Shown here piece by piece: positions 20,545 through 64,000 of a DNA stretch of 64,000 nt (position 1 is its first letter; every line of letters starts with the position of its first letter). The position numbers and the translations under genes are program-made. A model generated the notes under the pieces. The model ran no database searches. It was not told where the DNA came from and saw only the letters and a program-made list of their open reading frames with translations. Source of the stretch: Turritopsis dohrnii (taxonomy: Eukaryota; Cnidaria; Hydrozoa; Anthoathecata; Oceaniidae); contig BQMF02000592.1 in the NCBI GenBank assembly GCA_027922465.2, positions 162,822 to 226,821 of the forward strand. The letters are read 5' to 3'.

Positions 20545-22288
20545 TTATAATAGAAAGTTAGATGAGATTATTCATCTTCCCCAATTTCAGAAAGTTCTCC
20601 CCAAAAGGAAGAATGAGAAACATCCGGTGTTGAAGGAGGAGCAAAGAATCGTGGACACCCTGAAAAAACTAAGAGATCATAACCAGATAACTGAGACATT
20701 ATATGAGAAGCTGAAACCAATTGGGAGTCAACCTCCGAGATTATACGGCTTAGCCAAAGTTCACAAAAAGAACATTCCAGTCAGACCTGTTTTGTCCATG
20801 CCAGGCTCTGCTTATTATAACATTGCTGCCCAAGTGGCTGAATGGCTCTCAGTGGTGGATGAATGCAGAATTAACTCTTCTACGAAACTGATATCGGACA
20901 CTTTGAATGACATTCACATGGCTGATGATGAAGAAATCGTGAGTTTTGACGTAACATCGCTATATACAAACGTACCTGTGATGGAAGCGATTACAGAATG
21001 TACAAACCTACTGTTTTCAGGGAAATACAAAAAGCCACCTGTTTCAAAATCAACATTTAAGGAGCTGTTATCGATATGTAGTTGCAATGTCATGATGTTA
21101 ACGAGCCATGGGTTATATAAACAAGTTAATGGCCTGGCAATGGGCAGTCCACCTGCTCCAATGTTAGCAAATGGTTGGATGAGCAAATATGATGAAACGA
21201 TTCAAGGTCGAGCATCGTTATACTCAAGATACATAGATGATATTCTACGTAACATAAAACGAGCCGAAAAAGAGAGAAAACTACATGAAATCAACAACCT
21301 ACACCCTTCCTTGAATTTCACCATTGAACATGAAACCAACGGTTGCCTTCCTTTCTTGGATATGCTAATTCGAAATGACAACGGTAAATTGTCTTCTACC
21401 TGGTATACAAAACCAACAGACACGGGTCTAACTATGAACTTCCATGCATTGGCGCCGGAACGGTACAAGCGGTCAGTGGTCTCAGGGATGGTGCATCGAA
21501 TTGTACGAGCCTGTAGCACATGGAAAGGAGTCCACGAAAGTCTAGAGAAAGCAAAGGGAATTCTTGAAAACAACCAATATCCACCACGCTTCTACAACCC
21601 AATCATTAAAAATTGTTTGACATCCATTTTGGGCAAACAAGACAAAGAATCGGATCCGGATGAGGAAAAGAAAGAAGTCAAACTACTATTCATTCAGTAC
21701 CGTGGCCGACTTTCTGACAAGTTTGAACATTCGTTGAAGAAAATAACTGCACCATGCAAAGTTGTTTTTACAATGAAAAAAGTTAGAAATCTGTTACCAT
21801 CATTGAAAACGCAAGTAGAAAAGGACCTTAAAAGTCAAGTGGTGTACAAATTTAATTGTTCGCGATGTGAGTCGTGTTATGTTGGACAAACGAGCCGACA
21901 TCTTATCACCCGTTTTAAGGAACATTTGAACGCGTCAAAACCGGTAGCACGTCATATGAAGAGATGTAACAACAACCCCACTTTCGATGACGTAACGATC
22001 TTAGCGTCATCATCGAGGTCAATGAGCCATTTAATGATTTTGGAAGCATTATACATCAGGGAGTTGAAACCGCCAATCAACACGAGAGACGAATATAAAC
22101 AACACGAATTAGTAATTAGGTTGTAGATAGATGTTGATAACGAAGTTAGCTTTTAACCTTTGTACATAACGTTTATACTGTTTTTAAACTGTTTTTATTT
22201 TAATTTTAGAAAGAATCTGATGATGGAACCTAGTGTTTCGAAATATATCATTCAATAAAATTACATTGTTGGTTTATGCCTGATATCA
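20545..22288 (+). mobile_element. Penelope-like retroelement, copy 1 (5'-truncated)
   Basis: The insert carries one long reading frame and a 3' tail ending in GCCTGA/TA. The word AATAAAAGTTAA stands at 20533-20544 and again at 22289-22300, consistent with a target-site duplication of about 12 bp. The 3' end coincides with that of copy 2 at 31740. No second, upstream copy of the terminal repeat is seen, so the 5' part is missing. Confidence 0.8.
20579..22126 (+). CDS. Penelope-like reverse transcriptase with GIY-YIG endonuclease
   Basis: The frame is open from before 20579 and the protein is partial at its N terminus; the 499 residues from 20627 are numbered here. RT motifs are in order: 'RLYGLAKVHK' (38-47), 'SFDVTSLYTNVP' (106-117, motif A), 'GLAMGSPPAPMLAN' (169-182, motif B) and YIDD (202-205, motif C with the catalytic aspartates). 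The C terminus is a GIY-YIG nuclease with 'YVGQTSRHLITRFKEH', a Cys pair just before it ('NCSRCESC') and 'LEALYIRELKPPINTR'. The RT plus GIY-YIG order is diagnostic for endonuclease-bearing Penelope-like elements, which prime cDNA synthesis at the cut target. The catalytic residues look intact but the N-terminal region is truncated. The stop is at 22124. Confidence 0.92.
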   Translation, partial: PQFQKVLPKRKNEKHPVLKEEQRIVDTLKKLRDHNQITETLYEKLKPIGSQPPRLYGLAKVHKKNIPVRPVLSMPGSAYYNIAAQVAEWLSVVDECRINSSTKLISDTLNDIHMADDEEIVSFDVTSLYTNVPVMEAITECTNLLFSGKYKKPPVSKSTFKELLSICSCNVMMLTSHGLYKQVNGLAMGSPPAPMLANGWMSKYDETIQGRASLYSRYIDDILRNIKRAEKERKLHEINNLHPSLNFTIEHETNGCLPFLDMLIRNDNGKLSSTWYTKPTDTGLTMNFHALAPERYKRSVVSGMVHRIVRACSTWKGVHESLEKAKGILENNQYPPRFYNPIIKNCLTSILGKQDKESDPDEEKKEVKLLFIQYRGRLSDKFEHSLKKITAPCKVVFTMKKVRNLLPSLKTQVEKDLKSQVVYKFNCSRCESCYVGQTSRHLITRFKEHLNASKPVARHMKRCNNNPTFDDVTILASSSRSMSHLMILEALYIRELKPPINTRDEYKQHELVIRL

Positions 22289-30932: not shown

Positions 30933-31740
30933 GTGGTCTCAGGGATGGTGCATCGAATTGTACGAGCCTGTAGCACATGGAAAGGAGTCCACGAAAGTCT
31001 AGAGAAAGCAAAGGGAATTCTTGAAAACAACCAATATCCACCACGCTTCTACAACCCAATCATTAAAAATTGTTTGACATCCATTTTGGGCAAACAAGAC
31101 AAAGAATCGGATCCGGATGAGGAAAAGAAAGAAGTCAAACTACTATTCATTCAGTACCGTGGCCGACTTTCTGACAAGTTTGAACATTCGTTGAAGAAAA
31201 TAACTGCACCATGCAAAGTTGTTTTTACAATGAAAAAAGTTAGAAATCTGTTACCATCATTGAAAACGCAAGTAGAAAAGGACCTTAAAAGTCGAGTGGT
31301 GTACAAATTCAATTGTTCGCGATGTGAGTCGTGTTATGTTGGACAAACGAGCCGACATCTTATCACCCGTTTTAAGGAACATTTGAACGCGTCAAAACCG
31401 GTAGCACGTCATATGAAGAGATGTAACAACAACCCCACTTTCGATGACGTAACCATCTTAGCGTCATCATCGAGGTCAATGAGCCATTTAATGATTTTGG
31501 AAGCATTATACATCAGGGAGTTGAAACCGTCAATCAACACGAGAGACGAATATAAACAACATGAATTAGTAATTAGGTTGTAGATAGATGTTGATAACGA
31601 AGTTAGCTTTTAACCTTTGTACATAACGTTTATACTGTTTTTAAACTGTTTTTATTTTAATTTTAGAAAGAATCTGATGATGGAACCTAGTGTTTCGAAA
31701 TATATCATTCAATAAAATTACATTGTTGGTTTATGCCTGA
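30933..31740 (+). mobile_element. Penelope-like retroelement, copy 2 (3' fragment)
   Basis: This is a nearly identical copy of 21479-22284 (I count five base differences). The insert is bounded by an exact 10-bp duplication, TACAATATTA, at 30923-30932 and 31741-31750. It encodes only the last 216 residues: the end of the thumb/linker and the GIY-YIG nuclease with 'YVGQTSRHLITRFKEH' and 'LEALYIRELKPSINTR'. The RT domain is absent. Strong 5' truncation plus a target duplication shows insertion by target-primed reverse transcription. Dead as an element. Confidence 0.92.
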
Positions 31741-50356: not shown

Positions 50357-52463
50357 TCAGCTATATTCAGCGGTCAGGACTGTTACTAAATCTAAAGTTT
50401 TCATAAACACGTCAATTCCAACGCTATCATTCAAAACGCAAGTTGCTAAATTAGTGTTAATATTTTGAATCATTTCTTCGGTAAGAATATCTGGAGCAGA
50501 AAATATAGGTCGCACTGAATCATCATCGTTGTCATCAATATGCCCTTCAACCCCATAATACCTCAATTCATCCTCTGAAAATTCAATACCAACTTGGTTA
50601 TTCATTTGGCCTGATACCCACATTTTAAGTGGCGATGACTTAGTTGTGCGCATACGATGAGTGATCCACGCTTCATTCCAATTTTTCAGTCTATCGTTGA
50701 TCATTGGTAAAACTACATAGTGCAAACACCTAAGATGCACCTCATCCAGTGGATCTAAGATACCTTGCTCTTCCATGAAATAAAATAGCTCGTAAAAGTA
50801 ACTTAACACACCTGAGAAAACGTCTCTCCAAAGTCTTTCTATTCTTTGGTTGTGAGTACTCTTCCCCATAATAAAACTGCCATTAGTGGTGCCTCGATTT
50901 TCTAGCATGTAATCTGCGACCAGGACATTTTCAAGACCCTTATCAGATCGTACTCGCATTGGAAGACCATACTCCTCAACTCCTTTCAAAAAACTATTGA
51001 GTACAACTGTCGCCTTATTGCTGCTAGTACATTCTAACACAACGGGTAGGCGGCTGTATCCTTCTATTGCTCCGACAATAATAAAGTACCACCTTAAAAG
51101 TTTATGATTTATATCTAAGTGCCAAAGGTGGTTTGATCCCTGTACATTGTACTCTTCTGCTCAAGCGATCTTTCTTTCTTCTCTTAATACCATCAGGGTC
51201 CACTCCGTGCAAATTTTCACGTAGACGGAACCGTTGAATATGAATGCCTTTGTTTTTAAGCATTTCATTCATCATGTTCTCTCCACAGTTTGGATACAGC
51301 TGGGTCAATTCAAGTAGATGTTCATCAATATCCAGATCTGATAAATCATCAAAATTTCTCACTGTAAGACCGAAATCTTGCATACGTCGATATACAGTAC
51401 GTTCTGAAACGCAGATCAAACTTGCTATATCTCTCACTGGAAATCCTTCGCCTAACAAATTGGACAGAAGATTCTCCCGGATCAGAAACTTTGGAGCTCC
51501 TCCATTAAAATTCTGAGCTTTATCTGGTGATGAAGATCCAAAAACACTGCATTTAATTCGGAGAAACATGACAGGGGCTAATACAGGATTTGAATTTGGG
51601 CGGCGGTAGCCGCACATTGAGCCTGACTCGCTTCGCTCATCAGGCGAACAAATGCAGCTGGGGGTCAGGAGGGGCGCTGTAAGCCCCCTCTGTGGGGTCC
51701 GGGGACGAAGCCCCGAAAAATTTTCGATTTGAGGGCCTAGAATAGTCTAAAATGCGTTCTATTTTAACATACTATACATATTCTTAGTCCCTTAAAGCTT
51801 TCTCATTTCTTGTTATTCGTGTCGTAACAGTCTTTCCTGTAGAATCTTCAAATGTTCTTCGAAATTCAATCACGCGAATCGGCGTGTTTACCTTCCGCCA
51901 TTTTTGATTTCCTTACTTTGTGTATATTTTACAGGACTATATAATCATTTCGAAAGTTTCAGTTCGTAAAGTTATCACTTAGCCTTGGTAACCAGGTACG
52001 GAAACCTCACAGAGTGCCCTTCTTTCCCAGCGCTTCTTCTCTGCTTTACGCTAAATCGTAAGTCTGATTTAGCGCAAAAGAGAGAAGAAGCGACGGTAAC
52101 GAGGTTGTCTTTCCGCTTTAAAATAAGATGAACGAGTTTTGTTTCTCCTCACGATTCCTTTTTTCCCTTTCTTTCGTTTTGCTCTTCTCACATTCTTTTT
52201 TGATCTTTTCAAAAAAAAATTTTTCCCTTTTTTTTTGAATTTGGGCGCCTCGATCTTGGCGCCCAATAGCGGTTACCGCTATGAAATTTGACCTGTATTA
52301 GCCCCTGCATGATGATGTCTCTTTTAGTGACACCAACAGCTGCAAATTCAAATAAAGACATTTTTGGGACAATGTTTGGCGTTATATTTTCAGCAGCGAA
52401 TTTTTCAATAACATCATGGAGACCCAAATTTTCCAGAATATTCACCATCGCTGCGTTTGCCAT
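50357..52463 (-). pseudogene. SAM-HTH-integrase transposase, interrupted
   Basis: Reading from 52463, a SAM-type domain ('MVNILENLGLHDVIEKFAAE', then 'AAVGVTKRDIIM') is cut by a nested element (51573-52306). It resumes as 'MFLRIKCSVFGSS', then a helix-turn-helix ('FPVRDIASLICVSERTVYRR', about 51440-51380). A basic linker follows, then the rve integrase core: '[10 protein letters not shown]' (first Asp), '[16 protein letters not shown]' (second Asp) and '[13 protein letters not shown]' (Glu). These are the DDE residues that join transposon ends to target DNA. One base shift near 51130 separates the HTH part from the core. With the nested insertion this copy is inactive. The C terminus is acidic and ends at 50357. 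Confidence 0.75.
51573..52306. mobile_element. Nested GC-rich element with inverted ends
   Basis: AGGGGCTAATACAGG begins at 51573 and its complement CCTGTATTAGCCCCT ends at 52306. The flanks CATGA(C/T) on both sides suggest a short duplication. The left 130 bp is unusually GC-rich for the window ('gccccctctgtggggtccgg'). At 52031-52092 there is a strong imperfect palindrome around 'gctaaatc...gatttagc' with 'cgcttcttctct' arms. No long reading frame. Confidence 0.65.
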
Positions 52464-53626: not shown

Positions 53627-54816
53627 ACCACTGTGTTCCACAACGGTTTTATTTATATAGTTGAACTGTTTCAAGTTTTTCAGTTTTTCTTCTTTCTAGC
53701 TGGACTATTTTATACTTTCTAGACTATTTCTTTTGATATTTTTTAAATTTTGTTTTTTAATTGTCTATAAGAGGTATCTAATTCATTATCTGAAATCAAG
53801 CTTCACATAAAGTTTGCCAAAAATAGGGTGATTTTGCTAATTTCTTGAAATTTCAGATTTTTTGATAGGTTTGTGTGCATTGCCTTGTCATGTACATATA
53901 TCAAGGACACTTTATTACAAAAATGGTAACAAGATTTTGATTTGTGCCAAATAGTTGTTTAAGTTATCTTAAGTTATTTTTATAAGGTGAAAGAATAGCC
54001 TTAGAGGTTTCCAAAATGTGATAGTTGAACTCTGTAGCATAACTAGAACAAACTTTAAGGCTCATTTTTAAAAAAAACGTGCGCGCATTGTGGCCAATCA
54101 CAGAAAAAACAGCGGAGTCTAAAGGTTAAAGAAAAAAGACGTGCGAAATTTCTAATAAGGACTGATATACAATAGGGTGTTTCAAACCCGATTCATAGCA
54201 ACATACATAGCTAATTGAACTGGTGTGAAGCAAACAAAACAGAAGCGAAGCATGAAGCATGTGTTGAATATGATAGGTTTGAAATCTACATTCACTTCTT
54301 CATTCTTTAATTCATTCTTGATTCGATTTTTTTTCTTAACATTAACTTTAGACTTTTGATTGTTACGTTAACTGGAAATTTGAAAGCAGCAGGAGCCCAG
54401 TATTGAGGGTTTTATTATTTTATTATTTTTATTTTAGAGAGTGATATAATTACTAAGATTTTACGCTCAAGTTCTTCTTAGGTGTGTTTAAAACCATGTA
54501 GATGCGAGAGACACCTTTTGATGATTACTTCAAAAGCACGTGGCATCTGACGTCAGTTATTTTATGATCACGGCGAATCATTGCTACGCATCCCTAATGG
54601 AATGTGACGTTTTTGGGGAAATATCTAGAGAACCAAAAGGGATGACTGACATTTTTTGGGGTCGGTGATTCAGGTAATGGGGTCACACAACATTTGGGCC
54701 TAAATTTTATTTGGTACTGCGACTATGACATCATCCAAATCTATGACCGATTATATCTCTGCGACTCCATACATTTTTTGATCAGTTTTTTGAGATCTAC
54801 AACATAAGTACACTTT

Positions 54817-55052
54817 GATATAAGGTTGCGCTCCTTCATGGTATGAAAGGAAGGTAACAGCTCGTTATGTTAGTTACACAGACCCAGTTCGAAGGAAAAC
54901 TCCAAAGCAGGCGGGATTTGAACCCACGACCTAGGAATTCTAGTCCTATCGCTCTACCAACTGAGCTACCGGTTCATGGTTCCCGCCTGGTTCGGAGTTT
55001 TCCTTCGAACTGGGTCTGTGTAACTAACACAACCAGCTGTTACCTTCCTTTC
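54817..55052 (-). mobile_element. tRNA-cored foldback retroposon
   Basis: Two inverted arms of about 75 bp (54842-54916 and 54981-55055, few mismatches) enclose a 64-bp core that is most of a tRNA-like sequence. The whole insert is flanked by a direct repeat, ATAAGTACACTTT, at 54804-54816 and 55053-55065. A 13-14 bp duplication is typical of LINE-driven retroposition, not of MITEs. On the minus strand the 3' end reads 'gagcgcaaccttatatc'. The target is a Helitron fragment. Confidence 0.75.
54904..54975 (-). tRNA. tRNA-like core, candidate AGA anticodon
   Basis: The 72-nt minus-strand sequence has an A box (TAGCTCAGTTGG), an anticodon arm TAGGA-CTAGAAT-TCCTA, a T arm GTGGG-TTCAAAT-CCCGC (B box) and an acceptor stem with one C-C mismatch. 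The loop would read AGA, but the long variable arm of a serine tRNA is missing. It lies inside a foldback retroposon. More likely a promoter module of a mobile element than a working tRNA. Confidence 0.55.
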
Positions 55053-55397
55053 ATAAGTACACTTTCCAGTCCCGATTTCTTGTTTGAAATTTAAGTCACG
55101 GGTTAGCGCACGGCAACACGAGAGATAGGAAAGTGCGGATGTTAGGGCAAAACTATGACGTCATCAGAAATCATATGATTTCAGAATTTCCCTACTATAG
55201 CTAATATTATCATCTTTGTTTTCATAACGCGATACGAGTTATGAAACGTGTTATTTTGATTACATAAGTAGTTTCTATTATAACCACAAATTACTCATAA
55301 TTGTAAACAATTAAATATCTCATAAAAATGTAGTAAAAAGCAGTTTGTAGAAGTTTCATTTTATAACATAAATAAGCTAACAATACATATGACATAC

Positions 55398-55750
55398 AGG
55401 TCAGAGTAGTCTAGTGGATAAGAACGCTAACTTGTAACAACAAGGTCGTGTGTTCGAACCCCACTCGGTCTCTCATGTCCTGGTTGAAAAACTTGCATGA
55501 GTGCGCACTTCCCCGCAGTTGCGTTGGATATATCGCGGTTTGGGTAGACTTCGGTCTGGGTGATTAATCACTGTCAGGTTTCACTGGTCCACAGAGACAT
55601 TCAGGTTACCGTCAAATCGATCGAAATTCAACATAAACGTCAGGGCTTAGAAGTGTTAGCATGGACCTAAACTACTATGACATGTGGCTGTCGGTACAAA
55701 AACCTAAGGGTTCTCTAAAATAGAGTTTTGTTTTCAATAATAATAATAAT
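55398..55750 (+). mobile_element. tRNA-derived SINE
   Basis: The head (55398-55470) is tRNA-like with an A-box-like 'TAGTCTAGTGGATAAGA' and B-box 'GTGTTCGAACCCC'. The body of about 260 bp is non-coding ('ttcactggtccacagagaca') and ends 'ttttgttttcaataataat' with an (AAT)n tail. That tail overlaps the end of the next gene. No clear target duplication was found. Confidence 0.65.
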
Positions 55751-56870
55751 ACCATATACTAAACATCGTGGTAATCGCTAAAACCAAAGCTATTTTCTCT
55801 TCTTCGTGAGATGGGAGTGAATCTGTTTGACTCACTACTCTTTTGTGAACTTCTTTTTGAGAGCTAGTCACTTTGGGTGAAATATGATGCTCTTGCATAA
55901 CATTAATCATTTTGTTTCTTCCGAGGATCAAGTTGTCATTAGATATGAGAATTTTATTATTATAACCAGACACTCCCGACTTGATGTTTAGATTCATGTC
56001 ACTAGGTAACATGTAAATACCTTGTCCAACAGAATAATCAACTTTGCTTGAAGCGTAATTTAAAGTATCTTGATAACGTTTAATGTCATCTTGAATATCA
56101 ACTCTGCGGTTAACAATGTCTTCAAAGTTGTTCATAAAAACTCTTTGAGCTGTCAAAGCACTTGAATTATTACCTAAAATAGAAGAACGAGCTGAGGCTT
56201 GCGAACTAAGAACAAGATAAGCATATGCTCTAACACTCTCTGAAATTTTTACAAGACCTGTTTTTGTAAAGCCTTTAGATTTTTCTATAATCCATCGTGT
56301 CATGGAGTCGTCCGTGAAATAACTCAGACCTGGCGTTGGATAGTCTCTACGTCTTTTTTGATACGAGCTGTAAAAATATTGTCCTGTGTATTTTTTAGGA
56401 TCAGAATCGACACCATATTCACTACAGATTTTTAAAAACTCTTCTTTGTTATAAGGATTATCGTATTGGTTGAAACCGTTTTCAAAAGGTAGAGGTGTCT
56501 GAAGACGCTTAATGATTCGTCTAATATGATAATAGACATGAAAACGATATACTGCTCTAATCATAGGAGTAGAGCGACTTTCTTTCAGATGTTCAGAACT
56601 GACTCCACAAGCGCTTGAAGCACACCAAGTGACAAAATTGAGTTGGGTTTGCCATAATTTAAACGGTTGTTCCTGCCAAATTTTCATACGTTGATCATTT
56701 TCATCCATTTCGTAATTAGTAAATATATTTGGAAAAGTTGCGGGGAAAGAACCGCTCTCAGAGACGATAATTGTTTGTTTGTATAAATCTTTAGCATTCA
56801 ATATCTGGAGATATTGCCCTCCATTTGGTTTATAAAGCGCGTTGGGAACATATTTAAAAATATTCTCCAT
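55734..56870 (-). CDS. Virion-module protein of unknown function
   Basis: A single intronless frame of 378 codons starts at ATG 56870. The N-terminal half has 'FVTWCASSACGVSSEHLKES' and 'RFHVYYHIRRIIKRL'. The middle includes 'SKGFTKTGLVKISESVRAYA' and 'QARSS'-like Ala/Ser-rich helices, and the C-terminal part has 'VDYSVGQGIYMLPSDMNLNI'. I know this family only as an uncharacterised multi-copy cnidarian protein that travels with the capsid genes next door. It is divergent from the next gene, with a 38-bp gap. The natural C terminus seems altered: the last codons are Trp followed by five Tyr from the (AAT)n tail of the SINE, and the TGA stop lies in that tail. Confidence 0.75.
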   Translation of the reverse strand: MENIFKYVPNALYKPNGGQYLQILNAKDLYKQTIIVSESGSFPATFPNIFTNYEMDENDQRMKIWQEQPFKLWQTQLNFVTWCASSACGVSSEHLKESRSTPMIRAVYRFHVYYHIRRIIKRLQTPLPFENGFNQYDNPYNKEEFLKICSEYGVDSDPKKYTGQYFYSSYQKRRRDYPTPGLSYFTDDSMTRWIIEKSKGFTKTGLVKISESVRAYAYLVLSSQASARSSILGNNSSALTAQRVFMNNFEDIVNRRVDIQDDIKRYQDTLNYASSKVDYSVGQGIYMLPSDMNLNIKSGVSGYNNKILISNDNLILGRNKMINVMQEHHISPKVTSSQKEVHKRVVSQTDSLPSHEEEKIALVLAITTMFSIWYYYYY

Positions 56871-56908
56871 TATTATTTAATAATATTATCTTCTATTTAA
56901 TACAAGAA
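56871..56908. promoter_or_regulatory. Compact divergent promoter region
   Basis: Only 38 bp separate two divergent start codons. The sequence is almost pure AT and includes the palindrome ATTATTTAATAAT just left of the gap, which can serve as a TATA-like element for either direction. Confidence 0.4.
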
Positions 56909-57469
56909 ATGTATATCACGGTAAATATCGCAAAAGGAGAAAAGACCATATATCTATCTTACCCCATTCAAAACTTGGATGGCTCAAAAGAAATTGCATT
57001 GGTTGATATGTTTGCAGACAATGTTACGTATGAAATAACCACAGACCTAACAGTGAAACTGTCTGCTGATGGGAAAGCTAAAAAGTTGGTACCTAAAGGA
57101 ACATTCACGAGCAGGGAATTGAATGCCTTTTTAGCAGGTGCCTTTTTAGAAGGTGAGGTAAGTTTTAAATCATTAGTCAAAGACCCTCATATAATCAGAA
57201 CAAATAAGCTCGCTAAAATAACCAAAATGAATTTACATCTCTCTGAACTCGACAACACTCAAAATCTTGAGAATGGAAAGCTAAGTGATATTTTACTAAG
57301 CTATCACCTGGTTGAATATAATGACTTCACACATGTTCAGCCTAAAAACCCTCAATACAAAAAATTAAAAAATGGTGTATTTGAGTCTCTCACGTTGAAA
57401 CTCACAGATCAGCATGACAATATACTAAAAGAAGACCTAGGAAGAACCGTTGTTTTGCACATTCGCTAA
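56909..57469 (+). CDS. Candidate minor capsid (penton-like) protein
   Basis: 186 residues, intronless, ATG at 56909. The sequence is rich in beta-strand patterns. The last 30 residues ('FESLTLKLTDQHDNIL', then 'RTVVLHIR') follow the C-terminal signature I associate with the penton/minor-capsid proteins of Polinton-like elements. It stands directly before the major capsid gene (43 bp gap) on the same strand. Structural role is inferred from position and this C-terminal pattern, not from a proven match. Alternative: another beta-rich virion protein. Confidence 0.55.
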   Translation: MYITVNIAKGEKTIYLSYPIQNLDGSKEIALVDMFADNVTYEITTDLTVKLSADGKAKKLVPKGTFTSRELNAFLAGAFLEGEVSFKSLVKDPHIIRTNKLAKITKMNLHLSELDNTQNLENGKLSDILLSYHLVEYNDFTHVQPKNPQYKKLKNGVFESLTLKLTDQHDNILKEDLGRTVVLHIR

Positions 57470-57512
57470 AACGAGATAAAAAGTAAAAATTAATTATATA
57501 TCATAATTAATA

Positions 57513-58829
57513 ATGAAGTATGGAAAGAGGTTAAATCCAGAACGTTCACTTAGAACTGCCCACGGTGTAAAAGGTTCTCGTCAAAAAGTAATTGTCACAC
57601 ACAATCCGAGTGAGATCGATCAAAATCAGCTATTATTGGTTAGGTTTCCAAATTTAGGAAGTGGTGATGTCATTATCCCAGGAACAACGAATCTAAGTTT
57701 TGATATTGAACTCGAGTCAAAAGCTGACTCAAAAAGAACATTGGTCAGTAACATTGGGAGAGCTATTGTTAAAAAGTTGGCTGTCAAGTTCGAAGGTAAC
57801 GAGATATTGAGTATCGATGACTTTGATCTTTTCGGGTGTTACAGAGATTTATGGTTAACCAAGTTTGAAAAGAGAAACGCGATAAGACAGGGTATCATCA
57901 TCGACGATGGGTGTACAGAGAATTGTATGAAATTGAGGATTGATGCTTCTGATAAAGACACCACTGATGCGGAAGACAAAGCCATTGCTGACACCTATAA
58001 AAACAAGTTTGTCATTCCACTCGACTTTGAGATGCTAGATAGTACTATCCCATATTATCAAGCGGGTTTAGGGAATAGGTTATGCTACGAGATCACATTT
58101 AACGACTATAACCGAGTTATTTATTCTGACCCTCCAACTTCTGCCGCAGGTCAAAGAAAAAACCCAGACGGTAAATACAAAATATCTAACATCTCACTTG
58201 AATATGAGCTTGTGACACAACCCACGTTGGCTAGACAAATCGCTTCTGAATATCAAAACATGGCTTTGCTCTATGATAGGATTTTGCGACACAGACAAAT
58301 TAGAGTAAACAAGTCAGACACAACATGGAATTGGTCATTCAACACACCTGCCAAATCTTTGAAGGGTATTTTAGTTCTATTTGAAGAAGAAAAATCCTAC
58401 AAACGAGAAACTTGTAAATTCTATAATCCAAAGATCGAAAAGGTATCTGTCATCGTCGAGGGTAAGCCAAATCAACTTTTTGCTCAAGGGATGCAGCCGT
58501 TTGAACAATACAACGAGATTTGCAAGTATTTTGCTGAAGGAAAACCAAAAGATAATAGCGTCGGCGAAAACCGAAAGCGCTTGGGATTACATGATGTAAA
58601 AGTCTCTGATTACTTAACAAACAAGTATGCTCTATGGTTAGATTTCAGAACAATTGATGAGAATGCTTTGCATGGCACCGGTCGAAAGATTGAAAATGCA
58701 AGTGAAGGCATCACTTTACAGATTGAAAAGACCGCTGAAACTGCAGGAAACTTAAACGCATATATATATCTAATAATGGACGCTCAATTAAATATTCAAA
58801 ACGGTCAATTTATGTCTGCATTATATTAG
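57513..58829 (+). CDS. Major capsid protein candidate (double jelly-roll type)
   Basis: 438 residues, intronless, ATG at 57513 just after an AT-rich leader ('aattatatatcataattaat'). The basic N terminus 'KRLNPERSLRTAHGVKGSRQ' is followed by two beta-rich halves of roughly equal size. Recognisable blocks include 'LLLVRFPNLGSGDVIIPGT', 'FNDYNRVIYSDP' and, at the C terminus, 'YLIMDAQLNIQNGQFMSALY'. Length and position before a packaging ATPase fit the capsid protein of Polinton/PLV/adinto-like viruses, which forms icosahedral shells. I remember near relatives as repeated uncharacterised proteins in cnidarian genomes. The frame is intact. Only 4 bp separate it from the ATPase start, so the two may be co-transcribed. 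Confidence 0.75.
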   Translation: MKYGKRLNPERSLRTAHGVKGSRQKVIVTHNPSEIDQNQLLLVRFPNLGSGDVIIPGTTNLSFDIELESKADSKRTLVSNIGRAIVKKLAVKFEGNEILSIDDFDLFGCYRDLWLTKFEKRNAIRQGIIIDDGCTENCMKLRIDASDKDTTDAEDKAIADTYKNKFVIPLDFEMLDSTIPYYQAGLGNRLCYEITFNDYNRVIYSDPPTSAAGQRKNPDGKYKISNISLEYELVTQPTLARQIASEYQNMALLYDRILRHRQIRVNKSDTTWNWSFNTPAKSLKGILVLFEEEKSYKRETCKFYNPKIEKVSVIVEGKPNQLFAQGMQPFEQYNEICKYFAEGKPKDNSVGENRKRLGLHDVKVSDYLTNKYALWLDFRTIDENALHGTGRKIENASEGITLQIEKTAETAGNLNAYIYLIMDAQLNIQNGQFMSALY

Positions 58830-58833
58830 TAAA

Positions 58834-59439
58834 ATGGATACACTTTACATGAAAGAACCTCACACGGCATTATTCGTCGGACCAACATCGTGCGGCAAAA
58901 CGGATCGTGTTGTAAAATTATTAGAAAATCAATACTATGATCACTTTGATTTCATCGTGATTATATGTCCCACCTTGAGGTGGAATCAGACTTACAGAGA
59001 TCGGAAGTGGTTCTGGAATGACAGCTATGTGATTTTAATTGAGCCGGAAGGATCTTTGTATGAATGGATTAAGAAAATGGACTTTTTCTGTGCTGGATAT
59101 AAAACGTTATTTCTGATTGATGATATAATAGCTGATGAAAAATTGGACAAAAAGAGACAGCCTTTGCTCGAGTTGGCAATTAGTGGTAGACATCGAAATC
59201 ATTCGCTATGGTTACTTACACAATCATACACAGCTATACCTAAAAATTTACGACGACAAGCTAAAATGTTATATGTGTGGTATCCAAAAGATAGAAACGA
59301 TCTAGCCACCATTCATGAAGAGAATGATGTGATTGATTCACAAGAAGAATTGAAAAATGTCAAGGAAAAACTGAAAGAAGGGAAACACGCGTGCCTAGTC
59401 ATGAGAATGGAACATCCGAGAACGCACGTGATTTGTTAA
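58834..59439 (+). CDS. A32-like DNA-packaging ATPase
   Basis: 201 residues. Walker A GPTSCGKT at residues 16-23, Walker B LFLIDD at 92-97, then 'SGRHRNHSLWLLTQSY' at 117-132, the arginine/glutamine sensor block typical of the FtsK/HerA-type packaging ATPases (poxvirus A32, Polinton and PLV ATPases). The enzyme pumps viral DNA into the capsid. The C-terminal region is charged (KNVKEKLKEGK) and ends 'RTHVIC'. All catalytic motifs look intact. The gene follows the capsid gene by 4 bp and converges on the PPP1R15-like gene. Confidence 0.9.
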   Translation: MDTLYMKEPHTALFVGPTSCGKTDRVVKLLENQYYDHFDFIVIICPTLRWNQTYRDRKWFWNDSYVILIEPEGSLYEWIKKMDFFCAGYKTLFLIDDIIADEKLDKKRQPLLELAISGRHRNHSLWLLTQSYTAIPKNLRRQAKMLYVWYPKDRNDLATIHEENDVIDSQEELKNVKEKLKEGKHACLVMRMEHPRTHVIC

Positions 59440-59453
59440 ACAGGTTGATGTTA

Positions 59454-59478
59454 TTTGTTACATGACTCTTGTAACAAA
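59454..59478. terminator. Hairpin between convergent viral genes
   Basis: TTTGTTACA-tgactct-TGTAACAAA is a 9-bp perfect stem with a 7-nt loop, just after the ATPase stop and before the stop of the opposite gene. The same TGTTACA core forms a hairpin at the other convergent junction (61635-61659). Confidence 0.5.
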
Positions 59479-59491
59479 AAATATAAGACTC

Positions 59492-59737
59492 CTATAAGAC
59501 TCCTATAAGACTACTGTAAGAGAATAATTTACGTCTCAATACAGGATCTAGAATTTTACCAATATGTTTAATCCTCGATTCAAAGCGTACTCTGTCAACA
59601 GCAGCCTCTATCCAGTTACTTCTACGAGATTCACAAGCAGAGATATAATGGACCATTACTTTATCATTAAAAGTAACCCTTTTTGTATCTTGATGGGAAA
59701 ATATAATATCATCATCTGAGGATTCATCATCATACAT
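59492..59737 (-). CDS. PPP1R15/GADD34-like PP1-binding protein
   Basis: 81 residues. An acidic start (DDESSDDD) precedes KRVTF: an RVxF docking motif for protein phosphatase 1 at residues 20-23. Then 'VMVHYIS' (the hydrophobic pair region), Trp42, and 'DRVRFESRI' at 48-56. This order (RVxF, hydrophobic pair, Trp, then Arg/Phe-rich helix) is the conserved core of PPP1R15A/B, shared by ICP34.5 and DP71L of large DNA viruses. Those proteins guide PP1 to dephosphorylate eIF2-alpha and restore translation during stress. The frame is intact and intronless, lies inside the virus module and opens toward the repeat region, so it was probably captured from a host gene. Family assignment is by motif only. 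Confidence 0.75.
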   Translation of the reverse strand: MYDDESSDDDIIFSHQDTKRVTFNDKVMVHYISACESRRSNWIEAAVDRVRFESRIKHIGKILDPVLRRKLFSYSSLIGVL

Positions 59738-60001
59738 AATTGTTTAAGTAAACAATGTTTATTTATTTAACAATGTTAGAATATATTATTAAACATCGTC
59801 ATCCTCTTATACAACAAATTTCAACAAACTTATAAGAAGATAGCAAACTCTTATACAACAAATTTCAACAAACTTATAAGAAGACAGCAAACTCTTATAC
59901 AACAAATTTCAACAAAATTATAAGAAGACAGCAAACTCTTATACAACAAATTTCAACAAAATTATAAGAGAGTATAAGAAAATTATAACAAACACAACAA
60001 A
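59738..60001. repeat. Divergent promoter region with 44-bp tandem repeats
   Basis: Four copies of a 44-bp unit start at 59804, 59848, 59892 and 59936 (the last partial). Each unit has CTCTTATACAACAAATTTCA followed by a second half with TTATAAGA, so TCTTATA and TATAAGA face each other. The copies differ by single bases. Two genes start on either side (59737 leftward, 60002 rightward), so this is the likely control region. Confidence 0.8.
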
Positions 60002-60646
60002 ATGATAGAATATGTCAACTTTATATTATTAAGCATACTGCTGATCTCGCTATTTTACTTTTATTTTGTGTTAAAAAAATACCTCTCTCTAATAAAAATG
60101 GTGGAAACAGCGATCGATAATTTAATCAACCAGAGTTATGATGTTCCGGGTGAATTTCCACCTTCAGATGGTAAAAGACAAAAACTGCTAGAGTGTGTCT
60201 TAACAGGTAATAGCAAGCTATACTTAGGGAAAATGTACACCGAAGAACAGATTAACAAACTCAAAGATGAAGAGGTAGAAAAACTTTTTAGTATCTACGA
60301 GGCTAAACTATCAGGTCAAATGGTAAAATCCTTGGGGAAATCACTGATACGTATTTATTCCATGGGGGCTTGTGCAACGTTAGGAATAAACAATCAAGAT
60401 GCGTTGAGCAATGACCTGGAAAATGACCCCTTCTTAAACTCTGCCCTTCAAAGATTTACGTGTGACTTATATTATAAATTCGGCTCATTATTAGCACCAC
60501 TCAGTGTTGGACTTATTACCGGGAGGCATTATATCAATGAAAGGAATTTAAATAAATCCGATGATAATATAAATACAGTAGATAATAAAAATGTCAGAAG
60601 AACAGAATCCCATTCAAGTGACAACGAAGAACCCAAAAAAGGTTGA
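60002..60646 (+). CDS. Membrane-anchored virion-module protein
   Basis: 214 residues. A strong N-terminal membrane anchor (residues 5-25: 'FILLSILLISLFYFYFVL') is followed by a globular part with 'YLGKMYTEEQINKLKDEEVE', 'AKLSGQMVKSLGKSLIRIYS', 'DPFLNSALQRFTC' and 'FGSLLAPLSVGLITGRHYI'. The C terminus is polar. I know the family only as an uncharacterised companion of these capsid genes in cnidarian genomes. Likely part of an internal virion membrane or vertex. The start ATG follows 'ttataacaaacacaacaaa'. The last 56 bp overlap the next gene in another frame. Confidence 0.7.
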   Translation: MIEYVNFILLSILLISLFYFYFVLKKYLSLIKMVETAIDNLINQSYDVPGEFPPSDGKRQKLLECVLTGNSKLYLGKMYTEEQINKLKDEEVEKLFSIYEAKLSGQMVKSLGKSLIRIYSMGACATLGINNQDALSNDLENDPFLNSALQRFTCDLYYKFGSLLAPLSVGLITGRHYINERNLNKSDDNINTVDNKNVRRTESHSSDNEEPKKG

Positions 60647-60935
60647 AGCGGGTAAGAAGTTGGCGGAATACAACCGTAAAAAACGAGAACAATTAAAACA
60701 AGTGTCACCTCAAAAAGAAATGAATAAGCCTGAGGCCTCTCTCACCAAACCAAATGAACAACCCATGAACTACACCTATGGTGTAGGTGGAATAATAGCT
60801 CTCGGTTTAGTTGGTGGATTTGCTTATTTTGTGTATAAAAAGAGAGAGCAAATATTACCCCGTGGGTCACCATCCACCCCCCTTCCACAAAAATCTAAAA
60901 TACCAGTGAAAATCAATAAACATGAAATGGAATAA
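60591..60935 (+). CDS. Small single-span membrane protein
   Basis: 114 residues. A very basic N-terminal half ('KKVEAGKKLAEYNRKKREQL') precedes one membrane span, 'YGVGGIIALGLVGGFAYFVY', at about 65-84. A basic Pro-rich tail follows. The basic half could contact DNA or capsid. It starts inside the previous gene, a compact arrangement typical of viruses. No known function. Confidence 0.7.
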   Translation: MSEEQNPIQVTTKNPKKVEAGKKLAEYNRKKREQLKQVSPQKEMNKPEASLTKPNEQPMNYTYGVGGIIALGLVGGFAYFVYKKREQILPRGSPSTPLPQKSKIPVKINKHEME

Positions 60936-60962
60936 AAAGAAAAAAATGTATATATAACAAAC

Positions 60963-61190
60963 ATGGACAAGAAAAGTATTGTCAACGATTTATATCACGC
61001 ATCAGTCGTCTGCGTTTTCGCTATCGGCTACTCTATGCTAGGAAAAAAGGTGTTAAAAATGACACCTCCCTCTATTCAAAAGTTCGACTTGGAAGATACG
61101 GGAAAACTAGTTGCCATTATCGCCGCTAGTGAAGTGACAAAGGACTACTTAATCAAACAAAAGATTTTGCCTGAAAATATCAATATCTAA
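60963..61190 (+). CDS. Small membrane protein
   Basis: 75 residues with two hydrophobic segments: about 11-27 ('YHASVVCVFAIGYSMLG') and about 47-58 ('KLVAIIAASEVTK'). The C terminus reads 'DYLIKQKILPENI'. I remember this as another conserved companion of the capsid genes. It is 27 bp after the preceding gene and 2 bp before the next, so it looks like one transcription unit. Confidence 0.7.
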   Translation: MDKKSIVNDLYHASVVCVFAIGYSMLGKKVLKMTPPSIQKFDLEDTGKLVAIIAASEVTKDYLIKQKILPENINI

Positions 61191-61192
61191 AT

Positions 61193-61616
61193 ATGGCTTC
61201 TATCGCAATGATGTTGGGTGGAGCTTTGGCTAACGCTTTGGCTTTCACAGGATCAAGCTATCTGTTTTCAAGTTTATCCAAAGACAGAATCGATAGGGAA
61301 AGAAAACGTCATGATTTGGCCATAGAAAAATTACAAAAAGCACAGATTGAATGGCAGCAAAAACGACAGGAAAGGATCGATTTCATCAAATAAACAACTA
61401 TTGCTCGAAAAGAAGGCTGATTCAAAATTCGTAGAGCTAAACGATGCAATGAGAGAGTACAATAGGGTGTTTAGTAATCATCTTGAACCGCTACCACGAG
61501 AGCCTGTATTGAGCGACTTTTATACACCGAGTCATGATCAACATGAAAGAGAATTGGCTTTTATAGCTCTGAGTATGCTCGGTATTGGTGGTGCTGTGTG
61601 GTATTTTGAAAGATGA
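61193..61616 (+). pseudogene. Membrane and coiled-coil protein with a one-base frame break
   Basis: The first 66 codons (61193-61393) give an Ala/Gly-rich N-terminal membrane segment ('MMLGGALANALAFTGSSYLF'), then a charged helix ('RKRHDLAIEKLQKAQIEWQQ'). The frame hits a stop at 61391. The same family continues one base out of register to 61616, with 'LPREPVLSDFYTPSHDQ' and a final hydrophobic segment ('AFIALSMLGIGGAVWYF'). The gene should be one protein of about 140 residues with a membrane segment at each end. The break near 61387 is a single-base change. Function unknown. Confidence 0.7.
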
Positions 61617-61634
61617 AGACCATCAACAAAAAAT

Positions 61635-61659
61635 TATGTTACACGTATCGTGTAACATA
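61635..61659. terminator. Hairpin between convergent viral genes
   Basis: TATGTTACACG-tat-CGTGTAACATA is an 11-bp perfect stem with a 3-nt loop. It stands between the stops of the converging genes (61616 and 61675) and shares the TGTTACA core with the hairpin at 59454-59478. Confidence 0.55.
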
Positions 61660-61674
61660 TACACTTTCAGATGG

Positions 61675-62965
61675 TTATCGTCTAGTCACGAGGTACGTAT
61701 AGATCATCCATCCAACCCCTACAATCAGAGCCCATAAATTTTGACTCAACCAACCTACAACTTCTTTTGCTCTAGTGAGTATCCACGATACGATAGACCC
61801 AATTATTCCCGGTAAAGCCTCCGCCGCTTTAGACGCCAATCTACCTAGAAGTGATGCTAACGCTTTTAGTTTATTTTTTATCCATTCCTTTCCACCGTCC
61901 TTTTTATCACCACCTTTGTCAGGATTTTGTGAAGAGCTTCCAGCTGCTGACCCTCTCGGTAACAAAGCTTCCACAAGGACACCGATAGCCATACCAAACG
62001 CTGTCAGAATGCTAACGATTGTGATACCTTGTTCGCGGAATAGTGTTCGTATCCTTTCACCTAATGAAGTATCTTTGTCGAGGACTTTAGCAATGGTTTC
62101 TTTGATGTTCATAACTTGACTGTTTAATTTGCCTTTGAGAATATCAATGTTCTCTTTCCTAGCTTTCAACTCTTCACGTAATCCCTCCATTCTCTTTTCA
62201 ACCTCTTTTCGTTGTTCGTCCGTGTATGTCGCATCATTTTCCATTTCTTCCAACTTGTTTTTCTCCTTATCGATATGATGTTCTATTCGAACCTTTTTTG
62301 CAGCCTCTTCCTGAAGACCTCCTCGTATGTTTCTCAGCGCTTTATCCAATCCTAACAGCTCACGCACAGGATATTCAAATAGATCGCCGGTCTGAGTCAT
62401 TTCATGATCGATAGATTGTTGTCTAAGCGTTGAAATTAATCTTCCGTACTATTTGCAATGTTCCCCGTAATCTCCTCAAGCTCTACATCACTCGATTTTG
62501 TGATTTTAGATGATGAAGGAAGTTCTTCTTGTATTTTGTTTAGCATAACTGCTTGTCGTGCTGTTATTTTGCCAATAGGTATATCAAACCCTAAACTACG
62601 TAACCCCTTCTTAACCCAATATTCGAGCTATCTCTCCGGTAGCCCTTTGTATTTTTTCGCTCGTCATGGTTTGGTATTGTCTTTGTAGTATAATTCACCA
62701 TCTCTAATTTCAAACTGATCGGTATATAACACCTTAGGGTATTGCTGAGCCTTTCAGATAATCTTTTGTATATATCACCGACAAAACTTATCAAAAGTTT
62801 AATTTTTTGATCTCCACCACCAAATGAGGTTTCACCCCGTCGCTCCGCGTGTATCTATTTGTTCACCACCGAAGTTGGTATTGAGAGGAAACGGTCTCAT
62901 CGGTGTTTCATCTGTCCGTCATACCATGTTCTCCAAAAGGATCTATGTCAATGTCTGCCAATTTT
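61675..62965 (-). pseudogene. Large coiled-coil membrane protein, 5' part decayed
   Basis: The intact part (62400-61675, 241 codons) has a long coiled coil ('KEVEKRMEGLREELKARKEN'), then 'FREQGITIVSILTAFGMAIG' (membrane segment), a Gly/Ser/Lys linker and a C-terminal region with 'ALPGIIGSIVSWILTRAKEV' and a last membrane span before TRR. The upstream part survives only as frame-shifted pieces on the same strand: 'ADIDIDPFGEHG' (about 62950), 'LYTDQFEIRDGELYYKDN' (about 62730), 'MTSEKIQRATGEIARILG' (about 62670) and 'ARQAVMLNKIQEELPSS' (about 62560). I take these as one original protein of about 400 residues, perhaps a fibre or vertex protein. Function not known. Confidence 0.65.
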
Positions 62966-63064
62966 ATTATTCATATTAGAGGATAATTTATTATTAATTA
63001 TGTTATAACAAACTCTAAATATGAATTTTAAAATTTATCCAAAACTACCACTGCTCCTGAGGAT

Positions 63065-63586
63065 TTGAATGAGCAGGAAAGTTTTAACGCAAGCGTAATA
63101 AATTCTGAGTTTGAAGAGTTGATAAAACTTAAGAACAAATTTAGCATCAAGCTCAAGAGATACAACAAGGCGATAGAACGATCGATGCTACTAAATGCTA
63201 GCTCAAGCGCTATAACCATTGGCTCTGGCATCGGTTCAATTGCAACAGGGGCTACTATTATCGGAATACCTATTTCTGCAGGATTAGGTGGTGTAGCCTT
63301 AGCCGGCTCTATCTGTACCGGACTTACCACAGCTGTCATCAAAAGATATCAAAAGAAAGTAGAAAAAGTGATAAAATTATATGATATTGTTACATCCTCA
63401 ATCGCTGTGTTCGAAACTAACATAAGTCAGGCGCTGACTGATGGGAGGATCAATTACAAAGAATTCCAGGTTTTGCAGGGAACATATTACAAAGCTTTAG
63501 AAGGACTCAGTTCTACAGATAGAAAGATGGAGACTGAAACCCAAAATCAATTTCAAAAAAGTTTGATGGTAGAACTTCAAAACTGA
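63065..63586 (+). CDS. Membrane-active protein with Gly/Ala-rich hydrophobic core
   Basis: 173 codons counted from a TTG at 63065; no ATG is in frame, and an ATG at 63020 in another frame runs to a stop at 63068. The start may therefore be broken. Residues 43-100 form long hydrophobic helices ('SSAITIGSGIGSIATGATII', 'GLGGVALAGSICTGL'), flanked by charged coiled-coil helices ('KLKNKFSIKLKRYNKAIERS'). The layout resembles proteins that insert in or remodel membranes. I know it as another uncharacterised companion of these capsid genes. The C terminus is polar. Confidence 0.6.
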   Translation: MNEQESFNASVINSEFEELIKLKNKFSIKLKRYNKAIERSMLLNASSSAITIGSGIGSIATGATIIGIPISAGLGGVALAGSICTGLTTAVIKRYQKKVEKVIKLYDIVTSSIAVFETNISQALTDGRINYKEFQVLQGTYYKALEGLSSTDRKMETETQNQFQKSLMVELQN

Positions 63587-63689
63587 AAAAATCCATAAAC
63601 GAAAATGGTTACTAGGATGTGTTTGTGTGTTCCTCAATTTGAAAAGTGATATGATAAATGAAACTGATATGATCACAAGTATATAGACA

Positions 63690-64000
63690 ATGGAATTTCC
63701 AACAGTTGATACATTCGAACAAACAATCAACAAGCAAAACAAGGAACAAATGGCAGAGATCATAAAGTGGCGAGAGCTACCTGAAAACGTGATTTATCAT
63801 GTTAAATTTTTTTCTACAAAAGCTATGTATGCAGAGTTGAAAGACGGAGCAGGAAATATATATAAGGTGTGGTTGCCTGAAAGACTTTTCATTGAATTAA
63901 ATGATTATGGTTGGAGCTCTAGAGAGGCCTTTGTCAGACCGAAAGGTCTCAAACAATCTCAAAAGAATTCAGAAAGACAATTCTTTGATTATGACGTTGA
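63690..64000 (+). CDS. Partial gene running off the window
   Basis: An ATG at 63690 opens a frame that is still open at 64000 (103 codons). It has 'KWRELPENVIYHVKFFSTKA' and 'VWLPERLFIELNDYGW', a beta-rich pattern like small OB-fold or transcription-elongation-like proteins seen in Polinton-type elements. A function cannot be assigned. It confirms that the viral unit continues past the window. Confidence 0.55.
   Translation, partial: MEFPTVDTFEQTINKQNKEQMAEIIKWRELPENVIYHVKFFSTKAMYAELKDGAGNIYKVWLPERLFIELNDYGWSSREAFVRPKGLKQSQKNSERQFFDYDV

What the first reader, a model, noticed from the sequence alone, without database searches (positions are those of the whole stretch)
59492..59737. Virus-encoded PPP1R15/GADD34-like PP1 regulator
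The 81-residue protein has RVTF, a hydrophobic pair, a Trp and DRVRF..RI in the order and spacing of the PPP1R15 core that recruits PP1 to eIF2-alpha. Such genes are known from herpesviruses (ICP34.5) and African swine fever virus (DP71L). I know of no report in a Polinton-like virus of a cnidarian. It implies an antiviral eIF2-alpha kinase response in the host that this lineage had to counter.
Basis: partly seen in the sequence, partly recalled or inferred. Interest (0 to 1): 0.87.

Follow-up and report, generated by a model that had tools for sequence, protein, structure and literature searches.

The report
Virus-like element with PPP1R15-type PP1 regulator
A virus-like element sitting in what is probably an animal genome carries a tiny gene that closely resembles the part of an animal protein that steers a phosphatase to a translation factor, a trick a few animal viruses use to keep protein synthesis running during infection.

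Summary
The 81-residue ORF at 59492-59737 (-) matches Pfam PP1c_bdg (PF10488), the PPP1R15 core, at E 3.1e-7, above the curated cut-off. In a PDB sequence search its best matches are PPP1R15B, DP71L of African swine fever virus and, weakly, PPP1R15A. It keeps the RVxF, PhiPhi, Arg-pocket and Trp residues that dock on PP1, and part of those that contact G-actin and eIF2-alpha. Shuffles never reach its score (0 of 20,000). It sits in a compact gene block with an A32-type packaging ATPase and unproven capsid candidates. I read it as a core-only viral PPP1R15 that most likely works with host PP1 and actin on eIF2-alpha; function is inferred, and one paper disputes that the core alone recruits substrate. 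Not verified: cnidarian host, polinton-like class, other copies, selection; the tools for these were off or unreachable, and scans of IMG/VR, GTDB and INPHARED gave no relative. Viral PPP1R15 genes are a known kind, one from an insect virus included. My searches listed none in a polinton-type element: a new member in a new setting.

The parts
59492..59737 (-). 81-aa ORF, PPP1R15-core-like PP1 regulatory protein (core about residues 13-67)
   Evidence: PF10488 E 3.1e-7 above gathering score, residues 13-59; phmmer to PPP1R15B 7.8e-6, DP71L 1.6e-4; shuffles 0 of 20000
59669..59680 (-). RVxF motif R20-V21-T22-F23 (PP1 docking)
   Evidence: aligned to KVTF of PPP1R15B; residues printed
59642..59653 (-). 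PhiPhi stretch V29-H30 and Y31-I32
   Evidence: V29-H30 equals human PPP1R15A V564-H565 named in PMC10743859; I32 = PPP1R15B I652
59570..59626 (-). R38 to I56: Arg-pocket residue, W42 and D48-R49-V50-R51-F52..R55-I56, the actin and eIF2-alpha contact segment
   Evidence: 9 of 10 specified positions of the published eIF2-alpha-binding motif (motif text from PMC5346070)
59537..59551 (-). L63-D64-P65-V66-L67, equivalent of the DP71L LSAVL motif
   Evidence: aligned; the two leucines are the most critical residues of that motif in DP71L (PMC5346070)
58834..59439 (+). A32-like packaging ATPase, 201 aa
   Evidence: PF04665 E 8.6e-8 above cut-off; PHROG 2666 E 1.8e-11
57513..58829 (+). candidate major capsid protein, 438 aa
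   Evidence: position beside the ATPase; Pfam Capsid_N only E 0.043, below cut-off; no PDB sequence match; AF2 model unusable, pLDDT 36
56909..57469 (+). candidate minor capsid (penton-like) protein, 186 aa
   Evidence: inferred from position and size only; no family match
55734..56870 (-). 378-aa ORF of unknown function, left-most ORF of the block
   Evidence: open ORF; only a Pfam match at E 0.16, below cut-off
60002..60646 (+). 214-aa ORF with N-terminal hydrophobic stretch, divergent neighbour of the PP1 regulator gene
   Evidence: no family match
60591..61190 (+). two short ORFs (114 aa at 60591-60935, 75 aa at 60963-61190), each with a hydrophobic stretch
   Evidence: the 114-aa ORF has no family above cut-off and the 75-aa ORF no match
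61675..62400 (-). 241-aa coiled-coil protein with hydrophobic C-terminal part
   Evidence: only matches below cut-off, mostly to coiled-coil families
63185..63586 (+). 133-aa ORF near the window end; the block may continue past the window
   Evidence: a frame open for 104 codons within 63587-64000
59804..59969 (.). 44-bp tandem repeat (3.8 copies, 98 percent) in the shared upstream region of the divergent genes
   Evidence: candidate shared promoter region, inferred

Best explanation
The ORF encodes a core-only PPP1R15-type targeting subunit carried by an integrated virus-like element, probably of the polinton-like kind. Proposed working: V21/F23, V29-H30 and R38 dock it on host PP1 (shown: residues conserved; inferred: binding). 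The part from W42 on binds G-actin through F52/R55 and presents R51 and D48 to the N-terminal domain of eIF2-alpha (inferred from the human structure). The complex removes the Ser51 phosphate and keeps translation going when host eIF2-alpha kinases respond to infection (inferred). The gene was most likely captured from an animal PPP1R15 or from another animal virus, because yeasts, Aspergillus, plants and C. elegans are reported to have no PPP1R15 (PMC10743859).
For: PF10488 E 3.1e-7 above cut-off. PDB search: 7 of 8 listed sequences, the 7 best, are PPP1R15A, PPP1R15B or DP71L; no other PP1 regulator is listed. 7 of the 8 PPP1R15B residues named in the PMC4394352 passages as PP1-contacting or functionally important are identical (V641, F643, I652, R658, W662, F672, I676); Y650 is H30, as in human PPP1R15A. 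5 of the 8 PPP1R15A residues named in the PMC8500838 passages are kept: W582, D588, R591, F592, R595. 9 of 10 positions of the eIF2-alpha-binding motif; the next best of 1152 open stretches of 30 or more codons in the window has 7, shuffles at most 8 in 20,000. Both critical leucines of the DP71L LSAVL motif align with L63 and L67. The ~70-residue core is reported sufficient to attenuate the stress response in cells, and viral and invertebrate members are described as sharing this core (PMC4394352, PMC10998612). The gene lies 52 bases after the A32-like ATPase gene and 264 bases before the next ORF, in a densely packed block.
Against: Three structural contacts are not kept: R587 is V47, R594 is S54 and R612 (ungapped count) is F72. 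S40 falls outside the published motif class. PMC7615683 disputes that the C-terminal core recruits substrate: it reports that R15B 639-713 captures PP1 but not eIF2-alpha and places recruitment in upstream regions (helix H1, said to be conserved in ICP34.5 and DP71L); the ORF has only 19 residues before its RVxF, and I did not look for H1 in it. PMC10998612 finds the human core about ten times slower than an N-terminally extended form on the eIF2 trimer. No second copy, no expression data, no test of selection. The element may be decaying: 62401-63184 has no open stretch longer than 87 codons and 10-23 stops per frame. AF2 without an alignment gives one helix (residues 25-73) at mean pLDDT 69, and Foldseek with it found nothing. 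Host unknown.
Confidence: 0.7

Rival explanations
1. A genuine PPP1R15-derived gene, but an inactive relic: the integrated element has decayed, and the ORF survives because it is short. (This overlaps with the best explanation: the ancestor would have worked as described there.)
For: Stretch 62401-63184 has 10-23 stops in each of six frames, and the 66-aa ORF at 61193-61393 is followed by a coding-looking stretch in another frame (read by eye). An open frame of this length is not rare by chance: 83 of 2000. Three contact residues differ.
Against: Eleven ORFs of the block are open, among them those of 186 to 438 codons for the ATPase and capsid candidates. The docking residues reported as critical are kept in the ORF.
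Confidence: 0.2
2. A PP1-targeting protein of PPP1R15 descent that now serves another purpose, for example redirecting PP1 to a viral or other host substrate.
For: The PP1-docking half is kept, while two of four named eIF2-alpha contacts (R587, R594) are changed. The upstream substrate-recruiting regions described for PPP1R15B cannot fit in the 19 residues before RVxF as they stand in the human protein.
Against: DP71L, reported to cause dephosphorylation of eIF2-alpha (PMC5346070), also has V at the R587 position in the alignment; the actin contacts F592 and R595 and the LxxxL leucines are kept, which a pure PP1 docking protein would not need.
Confidence: 0.15
3. A piece of the host PPP1R15 gene or its retrocopy inserted between viral genes by chance, not a viral gene.
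For: The PPP1R15 core is encoded by a separate exon in the two mammalian genes (PMC4394352), so an exon-sized piece is imaginable.
Against: It has its own start and stop and sits in a normal intergenic slot between two ORFs. I did not search systematically for a poly-A tail, target-site duplication or further host exons around it.
Confidence: 0.06
4. Chance or convergence: an unrelated protein with a generic RVxF-PhiPhi-Arg PP1 docking string.
For: RVxF is short and common; the match covers about 50 residues.
Against: E-value, shuffle and PDB controls; the DRxRFxxRI segment lies outside the generic docking string; no other PP1 regulator of the PDB was listed.
Confidence: 0.02

Closest known systems
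Animal PPP1R15B / PPP1R15A (CReP / GADD34) C-terminal core
   Same: 42 and 39 percent identity to the human core fragments; RVxF, PhiPhi, Arg, Trp, DxxRF, RI in the same order and, against PPP1R15B, without a gap
   Different: No long N-terminal region, so no room for the membrane segment or the eIF2-gamma-binding repeats; R587, R594 and R612 equivalents changed; no RARA sequence
African swine fever virus DP71L, short form
   Same: Core-only viral protein of 70-72 aa; AAVDRxRF and the leucine pair of LSAVL
   Different: Different virus lineage; one residue fewer between RVxF and Trp in DP71L; the R594 equivalent is Arg in DP71L and Ser here
Herpes simplex virus ICP34.5 (gamma-34.5) and the insect virus protein coGV-gp036
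   Same: Viral PPP1R15 cores (PMC4394352)
   Different: Not compared by sequence here; ICP34.5 has an additional RARA motif (PMC5346070) that is absent here
Polintons / adintoviruses / polinton-like viruses
   Same: Compact virus-like block with packaging ATPase and candidate capsid genes side by side
   Different: No PolB, integrase or protease recognised in the part inside the window; capsid identity unproven; one held paper reports that cnidarian MCP genes are the only metazoan ones outside the main Maverick-Polinton cluster (PMC10120064)

Membership tests
PPP1R15 (PF10488) core | Profile match above curated cut-off | tested here: met
   30.7 bits against 26.1, E 3.1e-7
PPP1R15 (PF10488) core | RVxF, PhiPhi and Arg-pocket residues in register | tested here: met
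   V21, F23, V29-H30, I32, R38 against PPP1R15B/A residues named in PMC4394352 and PMC10743859
PPP1R15 (PF10488) core | Conserved Trp and actin-contacting Phe/Arg (W582, F592, R595) | tested here: met
   W42, F52, R55
PPP1R15 (PF10488) core | Actin-contacting Arg612 | tested here: not met
   F72 in the ungapped count; basic residues R68-R69-K70 lie close by. DP71L is also said to lack a RARA-like sequence (PMC5346070), so I do not treat this as family-defining
PPP1R15 (PF10488) core | eIF2-alpha contacts R587, D588, R591, R594 | tested here: inconclusive
   2 of 4: D48 and R51 kept; V47 and S54 changed
PPP1R15 (PF10488) core | Published eIF2-alpha-binding motif Rx[Gnl]x1-2Wxxx[Arlv]x[Dn][Rg]xRFxx[Rlvk][Ivc] | tested here: inconclusive
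   9 of 10 positions; S40 is outside [Gnl]
PPP1R15 (PF10488) core | Substrate-recruiting helix H1 upstream of the core (PMC7615683) | not tested
   Only 19 residues precede RVxF; no comparison with H1 was made
PPP1R15 (PF10488) core | Binds PP1 and G-actin and dephosphorylates eIF2-alpha | not testable with these tools
   needs biochemistry
Polinton-like virus / adintovirus | FtsK/A32-type packaging ATPase | tested here: met
   PF04665 E 8.6e-8
Polinton-like virus / adintovirus | Double jelly-roll major capsid protein | tested here: inconclusive
   Capsid_N E 0.043 below cut-off, no PDB match, AF2 pLDDT 36
Polinton-like virus / adintovirus | Protein-primed PolB and/or integrase, terminal repeats | tested here: inconclusive
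   None recognised among the ten ORFs of the block scanned, but the block may run past the window end; no shared 14-base inverted match between 54500-55740 and 55741-64000

The most novel reading that the evidence does not exclude
Probability: 0.45. Interest if true: 0.75.

Novelty: new member of a known kind. Interest (0 to 1): 0.6.

Why it matters
Viral PPP1R15-type proteins have been described from herpes simplex virus, African swine fever virus and an insect virus. Finding one in a small integrated virus-like element would show that this counter-measure is carried by a much simpler type of DNA virus. If the host is a cnidarian, it makes an old question testable: whether shutting down translation through eIF2-alpha was already antiviral before bilaterians arose. 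PPP1R15 is reported absent from yeasts, Aspergillus, plants and C. elegans (PMC10743859), so the gene also points to an animal, not a protist symbiont, as the place where the element replicated (inference).

Tried and rejected
Relatives of the ORF and of four neighbouring proteins: IMG/VR scans with the ORF, the capsid candidate, the ATPase, the alignment A1, the penton candidate and the 378-aa protein gave 32, 9, 2, 71, 7 and 0 pattern matches and no confirmed relative. A GTDB scan with the capsid candidate gave 8 pattern matches, none confirmed. INPHARED tblastn with ATPase, capsid candidate and ORF gave none at E 0.01, 0.1 and 1. GTDB and INPHARED hold prokaryote and phage records, and single-query scans reach close relatives only, so the absence says little. 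A DNA pattern for WxxxAxDRxRFxxRI hit one IMG/VR contig (L001): it looks like phage DNA by its ORFs (my reading), and the match lies out of frame inside a 721-aa ORF of the same strand, with stops close upstream: chance.

Structure: the single-sequence AF2 model of the capsid candidate is too poor and was not searched. The ORF model is one long helix; human PPP1R15 is reported to be unstructured until it wraps around PP1 (PMC4394352), so a model without partners is no evidence either way, and Foldseek found nothing. A complex with PP1 could not be predicted here.

Considered and dropped: ORF length as evidence; the SHR3_chaperone match at E 0.18; matches of the 241-aa and 133-aa proteins below cut-off.

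Literature: 'PPP1R15' with 'polinton' gave 0 papers; 'polinton-like virus' with 'cnidaria' and 'Hydra' 0. In two broader searches (40 of 277 and 30 of 1,349 papers listed) no listed paper held both a polinton/adintovirus/maverick term and a GADD34/ICP34.5/PP1/eIF2 term. Three held papers on such elements and on transfer among animal viruses contain no 'phosphatase' (GADD34 and PPP1R15 asked only). The adintovirus paper and Rojas 2015 are not held, so their content is not excluded; the Rojas motif is quoted from PMC5346070.

Full report
What is there. The minus strand at 59492-59737 holds an ATG-to-stop ORF of 81 codons. It lies between an A32-type packaging ATPase gene (58834-59439, PF04665 E 8.6e-8; PHROG 2666, terminase large subunit, E 1.8e-11) and a divergent 214-aa ORF (60002-60646). 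The block from about 55.7 kb to the window end is densely coding: a 378-aa ORF, two candidate capsid genes, the ATPase, this ORF and several short membrane-like or coiled-coil proteins. The candidate capsid genes are named from their position; Pfam's capsid model reaches only E 0.043, the PDB gives nothing and the structure model is unusable. No polymerase or integrase was recognised among the ten ORFs scanned, and the block may run past the end of the window, so the class 'polinton-like' is probable, not shown.

Family. Pfam PP1c_bdg (PF10488) matches residues 13-59 at E 3.1e-7, 30.7 bits against a cut-off of 26.1; the only other family listed is at E 0.18. Against the PDB chains, 8 sequences are listed up to E 10: four PPP1R15B constructs (7.8e-6, 1.1e-5, 0.0069, 0.75), DP71L (1.6e-4), two PPP1R15A constructs (0.21, 0.6) and the hypothetical protein PAE2754 (1.1) (that query lacked Met1, so its numbers are one lower than ORF numbers). 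No other PP1 regulator is listed. The alignment scores against the human cores are reached by 0 of 20,000 shuffles each, and by none of the other 659 open stretches of 40 or more codons in the window. A profile search of the PDB with alignment A1 also ranks DP71L at 1.5e-12, with nothing outside the family below E 0.7; A1 contains the human sequences, so only the DP71L row is informative there. PHROGs at E 0.01 and NCBIfam at E 0.1 list no family for the ORF.

Residue-level test. Numbers below are ORF residues. PP1 docking: V21 and F23 (RVxF), V29-H30 (the PhiPhi pair V564-H565 of human PPP1R15A, PMC10743859), I32, R38 (the Arg-pocket residue R658 of PPP1R15B) and W42 are in register. Of eight PPP1R15B residues named in the PMC4394352 passages (V641, F643, Y650, I652, R658, W662, F672, I676), seven are identical; Y650 is H30. 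Of eight PPP1R15A residues named in the PMC8500838 passages (W582, R587, D588, R591, F592, R594, R595, R612), five are kept and three are not: V47, S54 and, in an ungapped count, F72. In the alignment DP71L also has V at the R587 place, so that change is compatible with function. The published eIF2-alpha-binding motif (quoted in PMC5346070) is met at 9 of 10 positions, S40 being the exception; the human fragments score 10, the next best of 1152 open stretches of 30 or more codons scores 7, and 20,000 shuffles reach at most 8. The leucines L57 and L61 of the DP71L LSAVL motif, its most critical residues (PMC5346070), align with L63 and L67.

Mechanism. In the human complex PPP1R15 runs along PP1 up to its Trp, then forms a helix that G-actin stabilises and that offers its other face to the eIF2-alpha N-terminal domain (PMC8500838; PMC4394352). 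About 70 residues are reported sufficient in cells, and viral and invertebrate members are described as sharing this core without the long mammalian N-terminus (PMC4394352; PMC10998612). The ORF is almost exactly this core. There is a contrary view: PMC7615683 reports that R15B 639-713 captures PP1 but not eIF2-alpha and that recruitment needs upstream regions, one of which (H1) it finds conserved in ICP34.5 and DP71L; I did not test H1, and only 19 residues precede RVxF here. Shown here: the sequence relationship and the kept residues. Inferred: binding to PP1 and actin, action on eIF2-alpha, and the purpose of keeping translation on during infection. S54 and V47 leave room for a changed substrate, and signs of decay elsewhere in the element (no open stretch over 87 codons between 62401 and 63184) leave room for a relic.

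Origin. PPP1R15 is reported absent from S. cerevisiae, S. pombe, Aspergillus, plants and C. elegans (PMC10743859), and present in other animal phyla (PMC8500838). A PPP1R15 in the element therefore points to capture from an animal or an animal virus. Whether the host is a cnidarian could not be tested: of the ten ORFs of 150 or more codons outside the block nine were scanned, and the three with family matches look like mobile-element genes; the genome search did not complete. One held paper states that cnidarian capsid genes are the only metazoan ones outside the main Maverick-Polinton cluster (PMC10120064), which would fit the lack of profile hits but proves nothing.

Novelty. Viral PPP1R15 is a known kind: HSV-1, African swine fever virus, an insect virus, and the PP1-binding TGEV protein 7 that one review groups with them (PMC4394352, PMC10807198). 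'PPP1R15' with 'polinton' gave 0 papers, and two broader searches listed none among the rows shown (40 of 277, 30 of 1,349); the adintovirus paper is not held. Ten papers were seen as passages found by search words (PMC7615683, PMC10807198, PMC8500838, PMC10998612, PMC4394352, PMC5346070, PMC11071296, PMC11071308, PMC10120064, PMC10743859), others as listings only. I rate it a new member of a known kind in a new type of carrier.

Noticed in passing
59804-59969 and 59482-59521: A 44-bp tandem repeat (3.8 copies) lies between the divergent PP1-regulator and 214-aa genes, and an 11-bp TATAAGACTCC repeat overlaps the 3' end of the ORF; both contain TATAAG or CTTATA boxes.
   Followed up: partly
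61193-61615: The 66-aa ORF ends at 61393 and a coding-looking stretch continues in another frame (read by eye): a frame break or a separate gene; not joined.
   Followed up: partly
62401-63184: Stretch with 10-23 stops in each of the six frames between the 241-aa and 133-aa genes, possibly a decayed gene.
   Followed up: partly
20798-22126 and 30945-31583: A reverse transcriptase ORF with a GIY-YIG-like region (RVT_1 E 2.7e-7 above cut-off; GIY-YIG E 8.1e-4 below it), Penelope-like by recall, and a second ORF nearly identical to its C-terminal half (by eye; not scanned).
   Followed up: no
50357-51617: Integrase core ORF (PF24764 E 7.7e-42) with an ORF upstream of it that has a weak HTH match (E 3.4e-4, below cut-off), about 4 kb left of the element; whether it belongs to it is open.
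   Followed up: no
54842-55055: Inverted repeat with 75-nt arms (95 percent) around a tRNA-Ser-like sequence, close to the left side of the element.
   Followed up: no
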